NCBI GenBank assembly: GCA_017459565.1
Contig: JAFUCP010000029.1
Coordinates: 1-64,000, forward strand
DNA: 64,000 nucleotides
DNA from: Clostridia bacterium
Lineage (GTDB): Bacteria > Bacillota > Clostridia > Christensenellales > Aristaeellaceae
Reading direction: 5' to 3'
Part shown: piece after piece, positions 51,196 to 59,407 of the stretch
Position numbering within the stretch: the stretch's first letter is position 1
Layout: the number at the start of each line of letters is the position of its first letter
Notes under the pieces: model-generated
What the model was told of the DNA's origin: nothing
The model's input: only the letters and a program-made list of their open reading frames with translations
Databases searched by the model: none
Translations under genes and position numbers: made by a program

Positions 51196-51420
51196 ATGGC
51201 TGTAAGCTACCGGAAATTATGGCATTTGATGTTGGATAAAAAAATAAACAAATCCGGGCTCGAAAAACTTGCCGGCATTTCACATCATTCTATTTTGAAG
51301 ATGAACAGGGATGAAGATGTTTCAACTGAGGTGCTGACGAAGATATGTAGTGCGCTGCAGTGCAATGTCCAGGATATTGTAGAGTTTCTACCAGATAATA
51401 GTCATTCAGAAGAGACCTAA
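51196..51420 (+). CDS. Small XRE-family regulator (operon leader)
   Basis: This 74-residue protein is little more than a Cro/C1 helix-turn-helix: MAVSYRKLWHLMLDKKINKS, then LEKLAGISHHSILKMNRDED and LTKICSALQCNVQDIVEF. It is of the HTH_26/YozG-like type and similar to the protein at 63.1 kb. As first gene of the NurA-HerA-GHKL-radical SAM operon it probably represses it. GGGAGGTG precedes the ATG at 51196. Confidence 0.85.
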   Translation: MAVSYRKLWHLMLDKKINKSGLEKLAGISHHSILKMNRDEDVSTEVLTKICSALQCNVQDIVEFLPDNSHSEET

Positions 51421-51439: not shown

Positions 51440-52606
51440 GTGGCAGATAGGATAATGTCATGCCTTGCCAAAGAAACAGGCGGCACAAGCTACAAGGCTT
51501 TCAAGTACGGTCTCGATCATGCAGATAGACCTACAGTCGATTATGACGAGAACGGTATTATCTGGAAAGCCTACGGCGAAACCCAGCACCTAAAAAAATA
51601 TCGATCTTTGAAAGATCGGGCGAGTGAGTTGCAGGAGAATAACGAATACATTTTGACTTACTTTCTTGATGGCTCACGCCGTGTCTATAAGGTCGATGAT
51701 ATTGCGTATAATTTAGGTGGAAACCGTACCGGAATTTATCCTGCCATTGCAGGTCAGATCGGAGTAGCTTGTACCCACCGCGAGAATAGACGTTTGTCGT
51801 TGGCGCACATAGATCAGGAGATTGTCATAGCACTTCCTGACATGGCTGATAAAGATGGGAGAAACGGCTATTTCAATGCATTGGCGAGGAAGATCAATAC
51901 GCTACCCGTGCTTGCAAACGCTGGTGTTAAAATAGCTGACATTATCAAATATACGACAGACAAAGATACGGAAAAGTTTTCTGACAAAGGGGTGGCCCGC
52001 ATTCAGGAACGGATGATGAAAAAAGAAATTGATATGGTCGCTGCGCTTGTCAGGAATGGTGAAATAAACCAGGACAACTATCTTGTTAAGGATGGGTCGC
52101 TCGAGTATCGACCTTCAACGGAAGACAAACGAGATGAAAAGGCACTGATGAGGTTTAAGCAGAATTATAACTGGGTCATTGGTGTTTCAAAGAGCTTTAA
52201 TCCCGATATTTGTCTGGATGTAGATGGACACGCCAATCCCCGCTTTATTGCTGATTTACCATACCTTCATCGGACACCAGTATCGAAATATGTAAATCCA
52301 AAATGGTTCGGGGATTATTTGGAGTTTGCCGTTTGGTACATTAGGATACGTCCAAAGGAAAGAACCAGAACAGCCTTCGATGGCATTGTAAAAGTCGAAA
52401 AAATCCTTGTGAAGGAGAAAGAAGTTGCTCATGGGATGGACACCGATGACGTTGATACTATTAGCGCCAGCATCATCAATGAACGTGTTCCTGTCTGTTA
52501 TGGTTCAGATTTAAGATGGGCGAATCATTTGTATCCGATTTATTTGACAGAATCTTTACTAAAATCCAAGTACCTAAGCGCGGATGCTTTCCTACATTTA
52601 TTCTGA
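51440..52606 (+). CDS. NurA-like nuclease
   Basis: The 388-residue protein carries NurA-type motifs in the expected order: FLDGSRRV (D77), a second acidic strand HIDQEIVIALPD (about 123-134), DGSLEYRP (D218), VIGVSKS (K251) and a C-terminal YPIYLTESLLKSK. NurA is a Mn-dependent 5'-end nuclease that works with a HerA pump on DNA ends, and a HerA-like gene follows after 13 bases. The GTG start has AAAGGAGAAG upstream. The match is by motif only, so a divergent subfamily is likely. A+T-richer than the chromosome around it. Confidence 0.78.
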   Translation: MADRIMSCLAKETGGTSYKAFKYGLDHADRPTVDYDENGIIWKAYGETQHLKKYRSLKDRASELQENNEYILTYFLDGSRRVYKVDDIAYNLGGNRTGIYPAIAGQIGVACTHRENRRLSLAHIDQEIVIALPDMADKDGRNGYFNALARKINTLPVLANAGVKIADIIKYTTDKDTEKFSDKGVARIQERMMKKEIDMVAALVRNGEINQDNYLVKDGSLEYRPSTEDKRDEKALMRFKQNYNWVIGVSKSFNPDICLDVDGHANPRFIADLPYLHRTPVSKYVNPKWFGDYLEFAVWYIRIRPKERTRTAFDGIVKVEKILVKEKEVAHGMDTDDVDTISASIINERVPVCYGSDLRWANHLYPIYLTESLLKSKYLSADAFLHLF

Positions 52607-52619
52607 GAGGAGAAAGAGG

Positions 52620-54329
52620 ATGAACAGGCTGATTGGCAGGATCATTGCTACCGAGAAAAATCCTACGACGATGGATAAGTTCGTCTTCTGGACGGACTCG
52701 AATTTGAAACTTCATGCGTTTGATATCGTGAAAGTTGAACATCTTGAAGGATCGTTCACATTTGGCGTGGTAGAAAATATATCTCATATCACAGATGCTC
52801 AGAGTTTCTTGACGAATTATATTTCTAATGACTTCGGAGAATTAGATATTGAAGAACCCACGCTGCGCATTGGTATGAATTATGTGGAGGCAGCAGTTTC
52901 CTATAACACAATGGGAAACTATACTCCTGTACATAATAATATGAAAGTTTTCTTGGCGACGGAAGATGAGATAACAGCTGCCCTCGGCTTGAAAGACGTA
53001 AAGAATCCACTTGTATGTGGATCGCTAAAAATGTATGAAGGCACAGACGAAGAGATTGATCTTCCCGTTCATCTCAATTCAGCTTTTCTGCTTGGGCGTG
53101 AAGGTGCGCATCTAAACATTTCTGGCATTTCAGGTCTTGCATCTAAGACATCATATGCGATGTTCCTTCTTAAGGCAATTCAGGAGCGATATACTGGATT
53201 GGATGAAGAAGACGCTGGATCAGTGGCGTTTGTCATTTTCAACGTTAAAGGACATGATCTCATGTCTATTCACAAACCGAACGATTTTATAGATGAACCT
53301 GAAGGGGAAAAAGAACGGGTATTTAAGGCCTATCGTGACTTGGGGCTTACACCTGCTCCATTCAAAGATGTGCATTACTTTATACCTTACACAGCTGAAA
53401 CGACCTCAAAGCAGTCCACATATCTTCCACGAGAAGATGTGGAAACCTATATGCGCCAGAAAAGGCTGAGCAAATTTAAGTATTCCTACATGGACGACAA
53501 AGAAAGTATTGAAATGCTCTTTGCCGACGTAGAAGATCCCCAGCAAACTATGGAATCCATTATCAGCAAGGTAATAGACGAAAGCGACCCAGATTTCAGA
53601 AGTATAAGCAGTTGGAATGGGTTCCTTGAAAAAGTGGATGAGCTCTCTCAGAAGTCCACGACGACATCAAAAGGTACAGCACGATCTAATGAGATCAACA
53701 TCCTCAGCTGGAGAAAATTCAAGAGGATTATCAACAAGGCTTTGAAGAATGATGATATGTTCGCAAATCGGCCTGATGAAACACGTGGCGAATGCAGGCT
53801 TGCAGATTCTGTTATGAGAATTCGTCCGAATGATGTTTTTGTGGTTGATATTGCTAAGTTGCCAGAGGACAAGCAAGCATTCGTATTTGGCGATACAGTT
53901 CGGACGATCTACAACCTAAAACTGGGCGAATTTGATGGTAAGCCTGGAGTAAGGCCACCGTCAAAGATAGTCATTTTTGTTGATGAGCTCAACAAGTACG
54001 CATCAAAAGACACTCCGAAATCATCCCCGATTCTTCGGGAAATCCTTGATGTAACAGAACGTGGCCGTTCTTTGGGTGTCATTTTATTTGGAGCTGAACA
54101 GTTCAGATCCAATATTCATCAACGTGTTACTGGCAACTGCGCAACTCACGCATACGGTAGGACCAACAGTATTGAGACTGCAACTAAGGATTATGGTAGC
54201 CTTCCGTCAACGTATAAGAATATGCTGACGAGGTTGGATCAAGGAGATTATATCATCCAAAACCCTGTGTTCAGATCCCTACTGAAAATCCATTTTCCGA
54301 AGCCGATTTACAAACAACCGACGGATTGA
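52620..54329 (+). CDS. HerA-like DNA-translocating ATPase
   Basis: The 569-residue protein has an N-terminal HAS-barrel-like region (about 1-110), then a RecA-type ATPase core. The P-loop at 169-177 reads G-I-S-G-L-A-S-K-T, one residue longer than GxxxxGK[ST] and without the glycine before lysine. Walker B is KIVIFVDELNKYA, and a HerA-like LGVILFGAEQFRSNI with arginine follows. A long insert (about 225-370) separates the two halves. HerA forms hexamers that drive NurA along DNA. GAGGAGAAAGAGG precedes the ATG at 52620. Confidence 0.82.
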   Translation: MNRLIGRIIATEKNPTTMDKFVFWTDSNLKLHAFDIVKVEHLEGSFTFGVVENISHITDAQSFLTNYISNDFGELDIEEPTLRIGMNYVEAAVSYNTMGNYTPVHNNMKVFLATEDEITAALGLKDVKNPLVCGSLKMYEGTDEEIDLPVHLNSAFLLGREGAHLNISGISGLASKTSYAMFLLKAIQERYTGLDEEDAGSVAFVIFNVKGHDLMSIHKPNDFIDEPEGEKERVFKAYRDLGLTPAPFKDVHYFIPYTAETTSKQSTYLPREDVETYMRQKRLSKFKYSYMDDKESIEMLFADVEDPQQTMESIISKVIDESDPDFRSISSWNGFLEKVDELSQKSTTTSKGTARSNEINILSWRKFKRIINKALKNDDMFANRPDETRGECRLADSVMRIRPNDVFVVDIAKLPEDKQAFVFGDTVRTIYNLKLGEFDGKPGVRPPSKIVIFVDELNKYASKDTPKSSPILREILDVTERGRSLGVILFGAEQFRSNIHQRVTGNCATHAYGRTNSIETATKDYGSLPSTYKNMLTRLDQGDYIIQNPVFRSLLKIHFPKPIYKQPTD

Positions 54330-54339
54330 GGTAATTGAT

Positions 54340-55974
54340 ATGCCGGATTCTTCTGATTACGTCTTTGGCGCAAATATTCTTGATAATCTCACGACAGGAA
54401 TGTATACAGACTCACGGGTTATTTATCGTGAGTATATTCAGAATGCGTGTGATTCTATAGACGCGGCTATCGAAGAAGGCTTGCTGAGTCAGGGGCAGGG
54501 GACAGTTGAAATCTATACAGACGATTCAAGCCGCACCATCACTATTCGTGATAATGGAACAGGAATCTCTGCGCAAGCATTCAGAAGAACCTTAGGCAAT
54601 ATAGCTAATTCAGATAAAACATTGGGTGAATCAAAAGGCTTCAGAGGTATTGGTCGCCTGTGCGGTCTTGCCTATTGTGAAACGTTAGTCTTTTCTTCCA
54701 AAGTAAGCGGAGAGAGCTCAATCTCTTATATGAAGTGCGACGCAAAGATGATGCGTCGGCTGATTAATGAGAACCAAAGCCAGCGCAATGTGAAACTGTC
54801 CGCAGCAGAAGTGTTAGATAGGATCATTACCTATGATAAAAAGGACAGCAAAGATATCTCTGGACATTGGTTTGAGGTTGAACTTATCAATGTGAACGCG
54901 GAGAACCATGAGCTGCTGGCCAGAGAGAGTGTAATCGATTATCTCTCATTTGTTGCTCCGGTTCCATTTAACAAGAATTTCAGTTATCGAACTGCTATAT
55001 ATACATACGTTCAAGCGCATCACTATCACCTATATGAATATGTCATCAAGGTTAATGGAGAACAAATTTTCAAGGACTACAGAACTTATGTGAAAACCAG
55101 CAAAGGTGAAGATCATATATTTCAAGTGCAATTTCATGAAATATATGATGATGACAATGAAGTAATAGCATGGGTGTGGTATGGCCTTAGAAATTTTCAG
55201 GCAGTGATCGACAAGGACAGTCCACAACGCGGACTTCGTCTCCGTAAAGAGAACATCCAAATTGGGGATGAGGATGCATTACAGCGGTTGTTTAAGGAGG
55301 ATCGAGGCACACATTATTTTATCGGAGAAGTCCATGCTATTTCGCGTGACCTAATTCCGAATTCTCAAAGAGACTACTTTAATGAGAATCAGATGCGTAA
55401 TATATTCGAACGTGAAGCAGAACAATATTTTGTAGACACGCTTCACAAATTATATCATGCAGGGAATGACTTTAGTACAGCTGTGGATAAAATTGATGCA
55501 TATGAGAAACAGCGTGAAGAATTTGAACAGAAGAAGCGGAATGGTGATTACATAGATGACCAGCAGCGGAAAGATGCAGAAGCGAAGGTTAACAAGGCAA
55601 AGAGGAATGCTGAGGATGCCAAAAAGAAGATCGTCAATGTAACAGATCGCTATAAAGGTGATCCGGACAGCCCGATATTCAAAGTTGTGTCGCGCATAGC
55701 TAAAGATCGCGGTGCCACGAAATATATAGCCTCCAGTAGTAATGGCGGAGAAGGTTCTACGCCTGTACAGGAGGACAATCCGTCTGGAGAATCACAAGGG
55801 GAACCGAAGAAAGAAGAGCAGCCCAGGAAAAAACAATGGTGGACTGACAGACTGACATCGGTTCCAAAGAATGAACGAAAACTAATTACACGAGTGCTTA
55901 GAGTCGTTCGCAAATGTGTGGATGAGACTACCATGAAGAAGATACTAGATAAGGTAGAGGAAGATTTTAAATGA
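54340..55974 (+). CDS. GHKL (Hsp90/MORC-like) ATPase
   Basis: This 544-residue protein has the Bergerat ATP fold: N-box EYIQNACDSI (E31, N35, D38), DNGTGIS (71-77) and GFRGIGRL (100-107). A transducer-like domain follows to about 380, with SPQRGLRLRKENIQIG and PNSQRDYFNENQ resembling Hsp90-type middle segments. After a charged helical stretch (KQREEFEQKKRNGDYIDD to about 435) and a flexible linker, a short helical end closes the protein. Such ATPases act as clamps; as the third gene of the cassette it could sense or gate the NurA-HerA complex. That role is inference. Confidence 0.82.
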   Translation: MPDSSDYVFGANILDNLTTGMYTDSRVIYREYIQNACDSIDAAIEEGLLSQGQGTVEIYTDDSSRTITIRDNGTGISAQAFRRTLGNIANSDKTLGESKGFRGIGRLCGLAYCETLVFSSKVSGESSISYMKCDAKMMRRLINENQSQRNVKLSAAEVLDRIITYDKKDSKDISGHWFEVELINVNAENHELLARESVIDYLSFVAPVPFNKNFSYRTAIYTYVQAHHYHLYEYVIKVNGEQIFKDYRTYVKTSKGEDHIFQVQFHEIYDDDNEVIAWVWYGLRNFQAVIDKDSPQRGLRLRKENIQIGDEDALQRLFKEDRGTHYFIGEVHAISRDLIPNSQRDYFNENQMRNIFEREAEQYFVDTLHKLYHAGNDFSTAVDKIDAYEKQREEFEQKKRNGDYIDDQQRKDAEAKVNKAKRNAEDAKKKIVNVTDRYKGDPDSPIFKVVSRIAKDRGATKYIASSSNGGEGSTPVQEDNPSGESQGEPKKEEQPRKKQWWTDRLTSVPKNERKLITRVLRVVRKCVDETTMKKILDKVEEDFK

Positions 55975-57866
55975 GTCGGAAAGTTCTCCTAATTGAGCCT
56001 GATTATAAAAACAAATACCCTCCGATGGGGCTCATGAAGATTGCTACTTATTTCCGTCGCTGCGGAGATGATGTGCGATTTTTCAAGGGAGATCTGAGAC
56101 ACTTTGCAGCCCAATTACTCTGTGAGGAATATTTGCAAGAAAACAACGAGCACAGAATCAAAAGGTATTACCCTAACCTCCTCAATTATATAAAGCATGG
56201 TCACCTAAATGATATTGATGTTATCCCGGACTTTATGGGCACATCGTTGCAGGTGAATATTCAGTATTATCATATGCGATATGTGCATAAGGAATATCCA
56301 AAATTTGACTTCATAGGGGTAACAACGCTGTTCACGTTTTATTGGAAAAAAACAGTTGACACTATTAACCAGGCGAAACAGTTTCTCGCTGAGAATGGTC
56401 GCTTTATGGTAGGGGGGATAGCGTCTACGATTCTTCCTGAGCAGCTTTTTAAGGATACTGGTGTCCATCCCCACCTCGGACTATTGGATAAACCCGGAGA
56501 CATTGATGAGGGCAACCCAGATATAATCGACGAACTGCCTCTGGATTATTCGATTCTGCATGAAGTAGATTATCGTTATCCTGTAAGCGATGCCTATTTT
56601 GGATACATGACTCGCGGCTGCCCTCGAAACTGTACCTTTTGTGCTGTAAAAACACTGGAACCGAATTATAAGGACTATATCGGTATTAAGGATCAGTTAC
56701 AGTATATTAATAAGCGGTTCGGAGTAAAACGTGATTTGCTCCTGATGGATAACAATGTATTTGCATCTAAGTGTTTTGCGCAGATTATCGGGGAAATTAA
56801 AAAATGCGGGTTTGAAAAGGGTTCAAAATATGTCCCGAGCGATGAATATGTAATCGCTCTTCAGAATTTGAAGGAAGGGTATAATATTAGAGCTTATCTG
56901 CGTGTTGTAGTTGATATTTATAATAAGATCGCAGAAAAACTCACCAACGAAGAAGCGGGGGGGCTATATCTAAAGAGAGAAGAGCTTGCGCTACTCTATG
57001 CTGAAACAGCAACAGTAGATTCAGTAATACAGTTCGATGCTCTTTTCAGACCCTTTTATGATGCTCATCATAATTTACTCCCTAGAGTTCATCATATCGA
57101 TTTTAATCAAGGGTTGGATGCCAGACTTGCCACAGATGCGAAAATGGCAAAGCTTTCTGAAATATGCATAAAACCGCTGAGAATCGCATTTGACCATTAT
57201 GAACAGAGGGATACTTACTGTCGAGCTATCAGGCTTGCGGCGGCACATGGCATTACTGATATGTCAAATTATCTGTTGTATAATTTCGAGGATACACCCG
57301 AAGAATTATACTACCGTATGAAGATCAATGTTGACCTCTGCCAAGAGTTGGGAGTAAAAATATACTCTTTTCCGATGAAATATCATCCAATACGGGATCC
57401 GGAGTTCTTCGATAACAGAGACTATATTGGAAAGCGTTGGAATCGGAAATTCATAAGAACAATTCAGTGTATTCTGAATTCAACGAAAGGGAAAGTCGGG
57501 GCAAACAAAGCCTTTTTTGAACAAGCGTTTGGTAGAGATGTTGACGAATTTCACCGCTTGCTTTGGATGCCGGAAGAGTTCATCTTATTCCGCAGTAAGT
57601 ACGACGCAGAGTTTCGTGCCAGATTGGCAATCATGAATCCTGATAAGTACACGGCGAAGTCAAAGGACGGAAGTGATTTAGCGAATGAATGGTGGGATGC
57701 ATTCAACAGGCTTGATCCTCAAAAACTGGAAATTGCAAAGGCAATAATAAGCACAAACCAGTTTGATGAAGGGTCATACGAGTGCGATGACGATGAGATA
57801 TCATCATTGCTTGAGTACTATCGAATATCGTCGAATAATGCTCCGAAGATTATTGACGACGATTAG
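55971..57866 (+). CDS. Radical SAM protein with B12-binding-like N-terminal region
   Basis: The product has 631 residues. The N-terminal 170 residues look like a B12-binding-type Rossmann domain (VLLIEPDYKNKYPPMGLMKI, FDFIGVTTLF, GRFMVGGIAST), though the cobalamin histidine motif is not visible. The radical SAM cluster motif CPRNCTFC gives C217, C221 and C224. Later segments (HHIDFNQGLDARL, IAFDHYEQRDTYCRAI) fit a B12-dependent-type barrel. The substrate is unknown. It overlaps the GHKL gene by 4 bases, so it is translated with the nuclease/ATPase genes. Confidence 0.82.
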   Translation: MSRKVLLIEPDYKNKYPPMGLMKIATYFRRCGDDVRFFKGDLRHFAAQLLCEEYLQENNEHRIKRYYPNLLNYIKHGHLNDIDVIPDFMGTSLQVNIQYYHMRYVHKEYPKFDFIGVTTLFTFYWKKTVDTINQAKQFLAENGRFMVGGIASTILPEQLFKDTGVHPHLGLLDKPGDIDEGNPDIIDELPLDYSILHEVDYRYPVSDAYFGYMTRGCPRNCTFCAVKTLEPNYKDYIGIKDQLQYINKRFGVKRDLLLMDNNVFASKCFAQIIGEIKKCGFEKGSKYVPSDEYVIALQNLKEGYNIRAYLRVVVDIYNKIAEKLTNEEAGGLYLKREELALLYAETATVDSVIQFDALFRPFYDAHHNLLPRVHHIDFNQGLDARLATDAKMAKLSEICIKPLRIAFDHYEQRDTYCRAIRLAAAHGITDMSNYLLYNFEDTPEELYYRMKINVDLCQELGVKIYSFPMKYHPIRDPEFFDNRDYIGKRWNRKFIRTIQCILNSTKGKVGANKAFFEQAFGRDVDEFHRLLWMPEEFILFRSKYDAEFRARLAIMNPDKYTAKSKDGSDLANEWWDAFNRLDPQKLEIAKAIISTNQFDEGSYECDDDEISSLLEYYRISSNNAPKIIDDD

Positions 57867-58690: not shown

Positions 58691-59407
58691 ATGTTCTACT
58701 TTCTGTTACCGACACTGATGACCTACGACTTTATACTGCTGGCTGCTGCAGTCATCCCAGCAGTTTTTCTGATGGTGAAGGTGTATCGTTCTGATCGCCT
58801 TGAGCGAGAAAGTCCCTTTATGCTGTGGGCATTGGTTCGCGCCGGCATCTTCTCCTCCCTGATCGCCATGGTTGCGGAACGCATTCTCAGCGCAGTACTC
58901 GGTGCGGCTGTGTCCAATTATGAGTTGTACCAATTTCTGCTTTACTTTGGCGTCGTGGCGTTTTCTGAGGAAGGCGCAAAGTACTTCATGCTGCGCCGGT
59001 CCTCCTGGAATTCCAGAGAATTCAACTGTCAGTATGATGGCGTTGTGTATGCCGTATTCGTCTCACTGGGCTTTGCCGTCTGGGAGAATATCAGCTACGT
59101 CATGCATTATGGCTTCTCAACGGCGGTTGTGCGTGCCCTTACGGCTATCCCCGGCCATACATGCTTCGGCGTCTTTATGGGCATTTTCTACGGCATTGCC
59201 CGAAAGTATGCCAACAGAGGCAACTGGGAGCAGGCAAAGGCGTTTCAGATTCTGGCGGTAGTTATCCCGGCTATCCTGCATGGAGCATATGATTATATCG
59301 CAAGCACGGAAACCAGCAGCGGCTATTTCGTGGGGTTTATCATCGGGCTGTTTATTCTCTCATATCTGCTGGTCGTGAGAAGCTCAAAGCAGGATAGGTA
59401 TATTTGA
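58691..59407 (+). CDS. PrsW-family intramembrane metalloprotease
   Basis: The 238-residue protein has about seven membrane helices and the PrsW motifs: VAFSEEGAKYFML (EE-x2-K), GFAVWENISYVMH (FA-x2-EN) and IPGHTCFGV with a later PAILHGAYDYI. PrsW in Bacillus cleaves the anti-sigma factor RsiW. No sigma/anti-sigma pair with a membrane anchor is nearby. GGAGG precedes the ATG. Confidence 0.9.
   Translation: MFYFLLPTLMTYDFILLAAAVIPAVFLMVKVYRSDRLERESPFMLWALVRAGIFSSLIAMVAERILSAVLGAAVSNYELYQFLLYFGVVAFSEEGAKYFMLRRSSWNSREFNCQYDGVVYAVFVSLGFAVWENISYVMHYGFSTAVVRALTAIPGHTCFGVFMGIFYGIARKYANRGNWEQAKAFQILAVVIPAILHGAYDYIASTETSSGYFVGFIIGLFILSYLLVVRSSKQDRYI

What the first reader, a model, noticed from the sequence alone, without database searches (positions are those of the whole stretch)
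55971..57866. Radical SAM enzyme translationally coupled to a GHKL ATPase
A radical SAM protein with C217/C221/C224 and a B12-type N-terminal region overlaps the GHKL gene by 4 bases. Radical SAM enzymes in immunity are known mainly from viperins; this one is much larger (631 residues), lacks viperin-like length and motifs by eye, and is tied to nuclease genes.
Basis: partly seen in the sequence, partly recalled or inferred. Interest (0 to 1): 0.7.

Follow-up and report, generated by a model that had tools for sequence, protein, structure and literature searches.

The report
Radical SAM module in restriction cassette
A bacterial gene cassette pairs a DNA-shredding machine (NurA nuclease and HerA motor) with an unusual radical-chemistry enzyme and a GHKL ATPase; the same enzyme recurs in several other phage-defence cassettes, often where a DNA-marking enzyme would be expected, so it may be an undescribed way for bacteria to mark their own DNA.

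Summary
In detail: 55971-57866 encodes a 631-aa radical SAM protein (C217/C221/C224) whose ATG overlaps the GHKL stop by 4 nt. It ends a low-GC operon, NurA-HerA-GHKL-rSAM (51440-57866). Of 68 assessable homologous loci, 60 carry all four genes. All 7 other genomes whose HerA was found in a class-wide search also have the rSAM. The rSAM has a B12-binding-like Rossmann domain plus a radical-SAM barrel (best folds MgmA, AprD4, TsrM). It is not a viperin by model search, has no close paralogue in the genome, and is patchy.

The rSAM, usually with GHKL, also occurs with DISARM-like DrmA/DrmB, with PbeA/PbeC, with a PD-lambda-5_A-like ParB protein, and with ParB/SNF2/DpdB-like genes. Known versions of several of these carry a DNA methylase or phosphorothioation enzyme. 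In rSAM-bearing DISARM and Pbe loci none was found (0/6, versus 15/30 without rSAM; p=0.028, small, not phylogeny-corrected).

Best explanation (inferred): rSAM makes a DNA modification or self-signal that restrains a NurA-HerA restriction complex, as phosphorothioation is thought to do for TdpAB, whose nuclease matches the NurA model (Z 15). Chemistry and substrate are unproven. Rivals: maturase, antiviral effector, repair. No description found in the open-access library.

The parts
51197..51420 (+). Cro/C1-type HTH regulator (HTH_26; the ORF can extend to TTG 51142; ATG 51197 follows GGGAGGTG)
   Evidence: Pfam HTH_26 E 5.3e-17, VanU-like E 3e-16, below cutoff; an HTH gene at this place in only some relatives; sequence
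51440..52606 (+). NurA-like nuclease, 388 aa (GTG start); residues invariant or nearly so include D77-G78, E196, K217-D218-G219, K251, H363
   Evidence: AlphaFold pLDDT 87; Foldseek 7f6d_G NurA E 6.7e-12; VIA Z 20.9 to 7f6d, 15.4 to 2ygk, 15.2 to TdpAB 8wet; conservation in 61-62 of 62; sequence-only PDB match weak, E 0.21
52620..54329 (+). HerA-type hexameric ATPase, 569 aa from ATG 52620 (the listed ORF begins at 52584); Walker A-like GISGLASKTS, Walker B-like IVIFVDELNKY, sensor Q506, arginine fingers (numbering from 52584)
   Evidence: hmmsearch vs PDB 7f6d_B HerA E 3.7e-51; 569 aa is a common length in homologues; motifs
54340..55974 (+). GHKL (HSP90/HtpG-like) ATPase, 544 aa; E31, N35, D71, G75, G100xxGxG motifs conserved; C-terminal half without an assigned domain
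   Evidence: HATPase_c_3 E 1.1e-9; HtpG models E 3.9e-11 and HtpG structures E 2.5e-8; motif conservation in 70-71 of 71
55971..57866 (+). Radical SAM enzyme, 631 aa: B12-binding-like Rossmann region 1-~180, radical-SAM barrel ~205-520 with a helical insertion ~285-370, helical C-terminus
   Evidence: residues 100% conserved in host and phage forms: G216, C217, C221, C224, E230, D260-N261-N262, D377-FNQG381, D383, R404, D408, N438, W490

Best explanation
The window carries a horizontally acquired, four-gene, probable anti-invader cassette, NurA-HerA-GHKL-rSAM. Shown by sequence, fold model and gene order: a NurA-like RNase H-fold nuclease, its HerA translocase, a GHKL ATPase and a B12-fold radical SAM enzyme, conserved together. 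Inferred: HerA hexamers feed DNA to NurA dimers for degradation, and the rSAM supplies the self/non-self signal by making a radical-dependent modification, most likely on DNA, that restrains NurA-HerA. GHKL would act as the ATP-gated clamp or switch that couples recognition to restriction or to modification. The rSAM+GHKL pair would thus be a portable modification (or modification-sensing) module that also serves DISARM-like, Pbe-like and ParB-based restriction machinery. The precedent for the logic is the Tdp system, in which phosphorothioation gates a HerA/NurA-like TdpAB complex (function from my own knowledge; the structure 8wet is in the PDB).
For: (1) The full operon is present in 60 of 68 assessable loci across several phyla; the 7 other genomes with a HerA hit (8 of 391 including the window's) all also have NurA, GHKL and rSAM. 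(2) NurA and HerA both match the D. radiodurans HerA-NurA complex best, and NurA also matches TdpAB 8wet, Z 15.2. (3) The rSAM+GHKL pair occurs with DrmA (E 2.8e-161) and DrmB (E 1e-52) in L128/L220/L221 and with PbeA (E 3.4e-243) and PbeC (E 5.6e-226) in L258 (L259 alike by homology); L260 has PbeA/PbeC-like genes and rSAM but no GHKL found. The rSAM is paired with PD-Lambda-5_A-like ParB proteins in L125, L127 and L219 (no GHKL there), and with ParB, SNF2 and a DpdB/DndB-like protein plus GHKL in alphaproteobacteria. (4) Known versions carry modification enzymes: PD-lambda-5_B is a D12 DNA methylase; DISARM has DrmMI/DrmMII (PMC9142583); Pbe pairs with DndCDEA, and MTases lie near many (PMC6459918). 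(5) In Pbe/DISARM loci a DndC-like or MTase gene was found in 0/6 with rSAM and 15/30 without (p=0.028). (6) Phage homologues keep the same catalytic residues, and 9 have a ParB-like gene directly upstream. (7) Partner modules change repeatedly on the rSAM tree. (8) Flanks of the NurA-HerA loci hold restriction, AbiE, Old, pAgo and AriA genes; cassette GC 41.9% vs 57.4% for the window.
Against: No experiment shows defence or modification. The rSAM has no recognised DNA-binding domain. The substitution test is small, rests on motif and homology detection, is not corrected for phylogeny, and 15 of 30 non-rSAM loci also lack a detected modification gene, so absence alone is weak. Solitary PbeAC loci exist anyway (PMC6459918). 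L127 has a Dam-like gene about 8 kb away. Two Synergistota loci carry an intact rSAM alone beside clpB (L046, L057). The GHKL association would also suit a maturase or chaperone role. Cobalamin binding is unproven.
Confidence: 0.45

Rival explanations
1. The rSAM is a maturase: it modifies a protein of the cassette (GHKL, HerA or NurA) and is needed for assembly or activation, with GHKL as its chaperone or partner.
For: The rSAM is translationally coupled to GHKL and is most often found with it across modules. Among its nearest folds are enzymes that modify amino acids or proteins (MgmA, RimO).
Against: The rSAM also occurs without GHKL, next to PD-Lambda-5_A-like ParB proteins (L125, L127, L219) and in phages. 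NurA and HerA are not shared by all partners, so the only constant protein substrate would be GHKL.
Confidence: 0.2
2. The rSAM is an antiviral effector or signal maker, acting on nucleotides or on invader nucleic acid in the manner of viperin, alongside the nucleases.
For: It sits in defence-like cassettes and islands, and radical SAM viperins set a precedent.
Against: No PADLOC model matches the rSAM. Phages carry relatives with all catalytic residues intact, near ParB-like and terminase genes, which suits modification of their own DNA better than an antiviral toxin.
Confidence: 0.15
3. The cassette repairs or processes DNA or RNA (end resection by NurA-HerA plus a lesion- or RNA-modifying rSAM, as spore photoproduct lyase or MiaB do) and is not an immune system.
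For: Archaeal and Deinococcus HerA-NurA are studied as end-resection machines (PMC12977600). MiaB and RimO are among the fold neighbours.
Against: Patchy, low-GC, laterally distributed. Partners in related loci are restriction or defence components. PMC12977600 itself raises destruction of foreign DNA as a role for HerA-NurA.
Confidence: 0.12

Closest known systems
TdpABC (HerA/NurA-like TdpAB plus phosphorothioation enzyme TdpC; PDB 8wet, 8wfd)
   Same: NurA-fold nuclease (VIA Z 15.2) with a HerA-type motor, and a neighbouring enzyme that could mark DNA; the working logic proposed here is the same
   Different: No PP-loop DndC-like TdpC was seen in the cassette; a radical SAM enzyme and a GHKL ATPase instead. 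The function of Tdp is from my own knowledge; that paper was not held.
Deinococcus/archaeal HerA-NurA end-resection complex (7f6d, 2ygk, 9x1m)
   Same: Best sequence match for HerA (E 3.7e-51) and best fold match for NurA (Z 20.9)
   Different: GHKL and rSAM follow in the same operon here; accessory and patchy. Whether the known operons carry such neighbours was not checked here.
DISARM (DrmA/DrmB plus methylase)
   Same: Some relatives pair the rSAM with clear DrmA and DrmB
   Different: No DNA methylase found in the stretches examined; NERD-helicase, a UvrD-like helicase and a solenoid protein accompany them, and two GHKL genes where both ends were read
Pbe/CxC systems (PbeABCD)
   Same: PbeA, PbeC and a small ~150-aa gene precede rSAM in L258-L260 (GHKL follows in L258 and L259)
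   Different: No DndC-type or methylase gene found; an extra ~1100-aa gene leads
PD-lambda-5 (ParB-like A plus D12 DNA methylase B)
   Same: ParB-like A protein is next to rSAM in L125, L127 and L219
   Different: rSAM stands beside A where the known pair has the methylase
Class B (B12-fold) radical SAM enzymes: MgmA, TsrM, OxsB; AprD4
   Same: Domain order and fold (VIA Z 12.8-14.6)
   Different: 11-17% identity, family-specific DNN and DFNQG motifs, ~85-residue helical insertion; B12 binding untested
Prokaryotic viperins
   Same: Radical SAM enzyme in a defence setting
   Different: No model match, 631 aa, B12-like N-domain, fixed nuclease partners

Membership tests
Radical SAM superfamily | CxxxCxxC [4Fe-4S] motif in a TIM-type barrel | tested here: met
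   C217/C221/C224 in 67/67 homologues; fold match. Pfam below cutoff.
Cobalamin-dependent (class B) radical SAM methyltransferases | N-terminal B12-binding Rossmann fold | tested here: met
   B12-binding 21.9 bits, below cutoff; model aligns with TsrM, OxsB and MgmA from residue 1-4 on
Cobalamin-dependent (class B) radical SAM methyltransferases | Bound cobalamin and methyl transfer | not testable with these tools
   AprD4 and MiaB score alike
Viperin | Match to a viperin profile | tested here: not met
   PADLOC-DB scan: 0 families for the rSAM at E<=0.1
MiaB/RimO methylthiotransferases | UPF0004 and TRAM domains | tested here: not met
   Neither detected by Pfam, despite fold resemblance
HerA-NurA complex | HerA motor of the HerA family | tested here: met
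   7f6d_B E 3.7e-51
HerA-NurA complex | NurA fold with conserved acidic catalytic residues | tested here: met
   Z 20.9 / 15.4 to NurA structures; D77, E196, D218 and H363 conserved in 61-62 of 62; assignment of these as the catalytic set is from my knowledge of NurA
TdpABC | DndC-like PP-loop phosphorothioation enzyme beside HerA/NurA | tested here: not met
   No such gene among the cassette ORFs
DISARM | DrmA and DrmB | tested here: not met
   Absent from the window cassette; present only in related loci
Restriction-modification type system | Modification enzyme that protects self DNA | not testable with these tools
   Inferred from gene context

The most novel reading that the evidence does not exclude
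The rSAM family installs a previously unknown radical-dependent DNA modification, used as the self mark by several different restriction modules (NurA-HerA, DISARM-like, Pbe-like, ParB/DpdB-like, PD-lambda-5-like) and carried by phages as a counter-measure.
Probability: 0.35. Interest if true: 0.92.

Novelty: new variant of a known kind. Interest (0 to 1): 0.72.

Why it matters
Known restriction-type systems mark self DNA with SAM-dependent methylases, phosphorothioation or 7-deazaguanine. A radical SAM enzyme in that role would add a new class of modification chemistry, could explain some DISARM and Pbe systems that lack an evident modification gene, and would make a defined four-gene cassette testable. 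It would also give a function to an uncharacterised phage protein family (PHROG 9298).

Tried and rejected
Viperin: no PADLOC match for the rSAM. Housekeeping enzyme: no close paralogue, patchy. Methyl-cysteine mechanism through C457: dropped, the residue is not conserved across the family. Weak rSAM hits in other Pbe loci (L268, L275; a similar protein in L279) were left out of the counts: 43-65 bits or none; those of L275 and L279 resemble each other and look like a different clostridial rSAM family. NPPY/SPPY motif hits in L282 and L289 were not counted as methylases after looking at the sequences. Sequence-profile search of the rSAM against the PDB gave nothing. Empty-site comparison in same-genus genomes failed, as only one flanking gene aligned in each relative. 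Literature: no open paper joins HerA, NurA and radical SAM in defence; two papers wanted for Tdp and for phage thymidine hypermodification were not held. A ParB-methylase-terminase slot in phages was only partly supported: Pfam saw ParB_N in 2 of the 75 neighbours, although 9 direct upstream neighbours fall in one ParB-like cluster.

Full report
OBSERVATION. The ORF at 55971-57866 is as described: ATG start, 631 aa, C217/C221/C224, and its first four bases overlap the end of the GHKL gene 54340-55974. Pfam sees both the Radical_SAM and the B12-binding domains only below the curated cutoffs; PHROG 9298 gives E 4.5e-37. The three cysteines are present in 67 of 67 aligned relatives, and the AlphaFold model (pLDDT 89) aligns over residues 1 to about 520 with MgmA, AprD4, TsrM, OxsB and MiaB (Z 12-15).

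THE CASSETTE. Upstream lie a Cro/C1-type regulator, a 388-aa gene, a HerA-like ATPase and the GHKL ATPase. The 388-aa gene had no convincing Pfam family, but its model (pLDDT 87) matches D. radiodurans NurA (Foldseek E 6.7e-12, VIA Z 20.9), S. solfataricus NurA (Z 15.4) and TdpAB (Z 15.2); D77, E196, D218 and H363 are conserved in 61-62 of 62 relatives. The second gene matches HerA of the same D. radiodurans complex (E 3.7e-51). The GHKL protein is HtpG-like at its N-terminus. The cassette is 41.9% GC in a 57.4% GC window.

CONSERVATION. 216 stretches encoding a relative were found in one genome scan; 80 were kept. Of these 80 loci, 60 have the full order NurA-HerA-GHKL-rSAM, 12 cannot be judged because the contig ends, and 8 are incomplete. 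A 4-nt GHKL/rSAM overlap is the commonest junction (26 loci). In a class-wide search HerA was found in 8 of 391 genomes including the window's own; all seven others carry NurA, GHKL and rSAM beside it. In the order, 18 of 396 genomes have any rSAM-like match at E<=0.001, and two same-genus genomes have none. This is an accessory, laterally moving unit.

THE rSAM ELSEWHERE. Related rSAMs, usually with GHKL, occur in other settings. In L128, L220 and L221 they follow DrmA (E 2.8e-161 in L128), DrmB (E 1e-52) and a NERD-helicase gene, with a UvrD-like helicase and a solenoid protein upstream. In L258, L259 and L260 they follow PbeA (E 3.4e-243 in L258), PbeC (E 5.6e-226) and a ~150-aa gene; GHKL was found in L258 and L259 but not in L260. 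In L125, L127 and L219 the rSAM is beside a ParB-like PD-Lambda-5_A relative. In alphaproteobacterial plasmids and contigs it occurs with ParB, a small protein, an SNF2 helicase, a second ParB and a DpdB/DndB-like protein. On the rSAM tree the partner label changes 16 times, against 8 at least, and NurA-HerA appears in more than one place (quick tree, some long branches).

WHY A MODIFICATION ROLE. Known forms of several of these systems contain a DNA-marking enzyme: a D12 methylase is PD-lambda-5_B; DISARM has DrmMI/DrmMII (PMC9142583); PbeABCD works with DndCDEA, and 155 of its 320 dnd-less loci lie near methylase genes (PMC6459918). I compared Pbe and DISARM loci from the same phylum sample, plus three rSAM-bearing DISARM loci found by other searches. 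Among loci without the rSAM, 6 of 16 Pbe loci have a full DndC-like gene and 9 of 14 DISARM loci have a methylase; among loci with it, 0 of 6 have either. The one-sided Fisher p is 0.028, or 0.014 if two further PP-loop genes are counted. The sample is small, loci are related, and half of the non-rSAM loci also show no modification gene, so this is suggestive only. Phage relatives keep every one of a set of residues that is invariant in the host forms, and nine have a ParB-like gene directly upstream.

MECHANISM, COMMITTED. Inferred: rSAM, with GHKL, makes or maintains a self mark, most likely on DNA; HerA translocates unmarked DNA into NurA for degradation. From my own knowledge, TdpC phosphorothioation gates the HerA/NurA-like TdpAB complex in this way. 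Not shown: that the cassette defends, that rSAM acts on DNA, or that it binds cobalamin. Rivals are a protein maturase (0.2), an antiviral effector (0.15) and a repair system (0.12).

NOVELTY. No paper in the open library joins these genes; subscription papers and preprints were not searchable, so prior description cannot be excluded. I rate it a new variant of a known kind (a modification-gated restriction system), with a more novel reading if the chemistry is new.

Noticed in passing
L128:2-14726; L220 with L264; L221 with L265: DISARM-like cassettes with a UvrD-like helicase, a bactofilin/FapA-like solenoid gene, DrmA, DrmB, NERD-helicase, rSAM and GHKL (a second GHKL in L264 and L265), and no methylase found.
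   Followed up: partly
L029:11912-14151, L031:11915-14140, L126:7726-9987, L070:11895-14164: A small ~250-aa gene (weak guanylate-cyclase match in L029) directly precedes a further GHKL gene beside the rSAM; it may be another linked module.
   Followed up: no
L046:10001-11806, L057:10001-11791: Intact rSAM alone, a short distance downstream of clpB in two Synergistota loci; no NurA, HerA or GHKL found within 10 kb.
   Followed up: partly
L258:532-3999, L259:11261-14623: A ~1120-1156-aa gene with a sigma-70 region 4-like segment (in L258) leads the Pbe-rSAM clusters; function unknown.
   Followed up: no
L034:6987-8261: A gene that looks like an insertion-sequence transposase lies between HerA and GHKL in one cassette, on the opposite strand.
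   Followed up: no
L119 (MT836743.1): An 8.9-kb scaffold filed as 'Bacteriophage sp.' carries the whole NurA-HerA-GHKL-rSAM cassette; it may be bacterial or prophage DNA.
   Followed up: partly
L268:4800-6056: A different-looking rSAM (65 bits) on the same strand just after PbeC in a Pbe cluster; possibly another radical SAM partner.
   Followed up: partly
window 58691-59407: PrsW-type intramembrane protease gene downstream of the cassette, with homologues in several same-genus genomes; may mark the edge of the insertion.
   Followed up: partly
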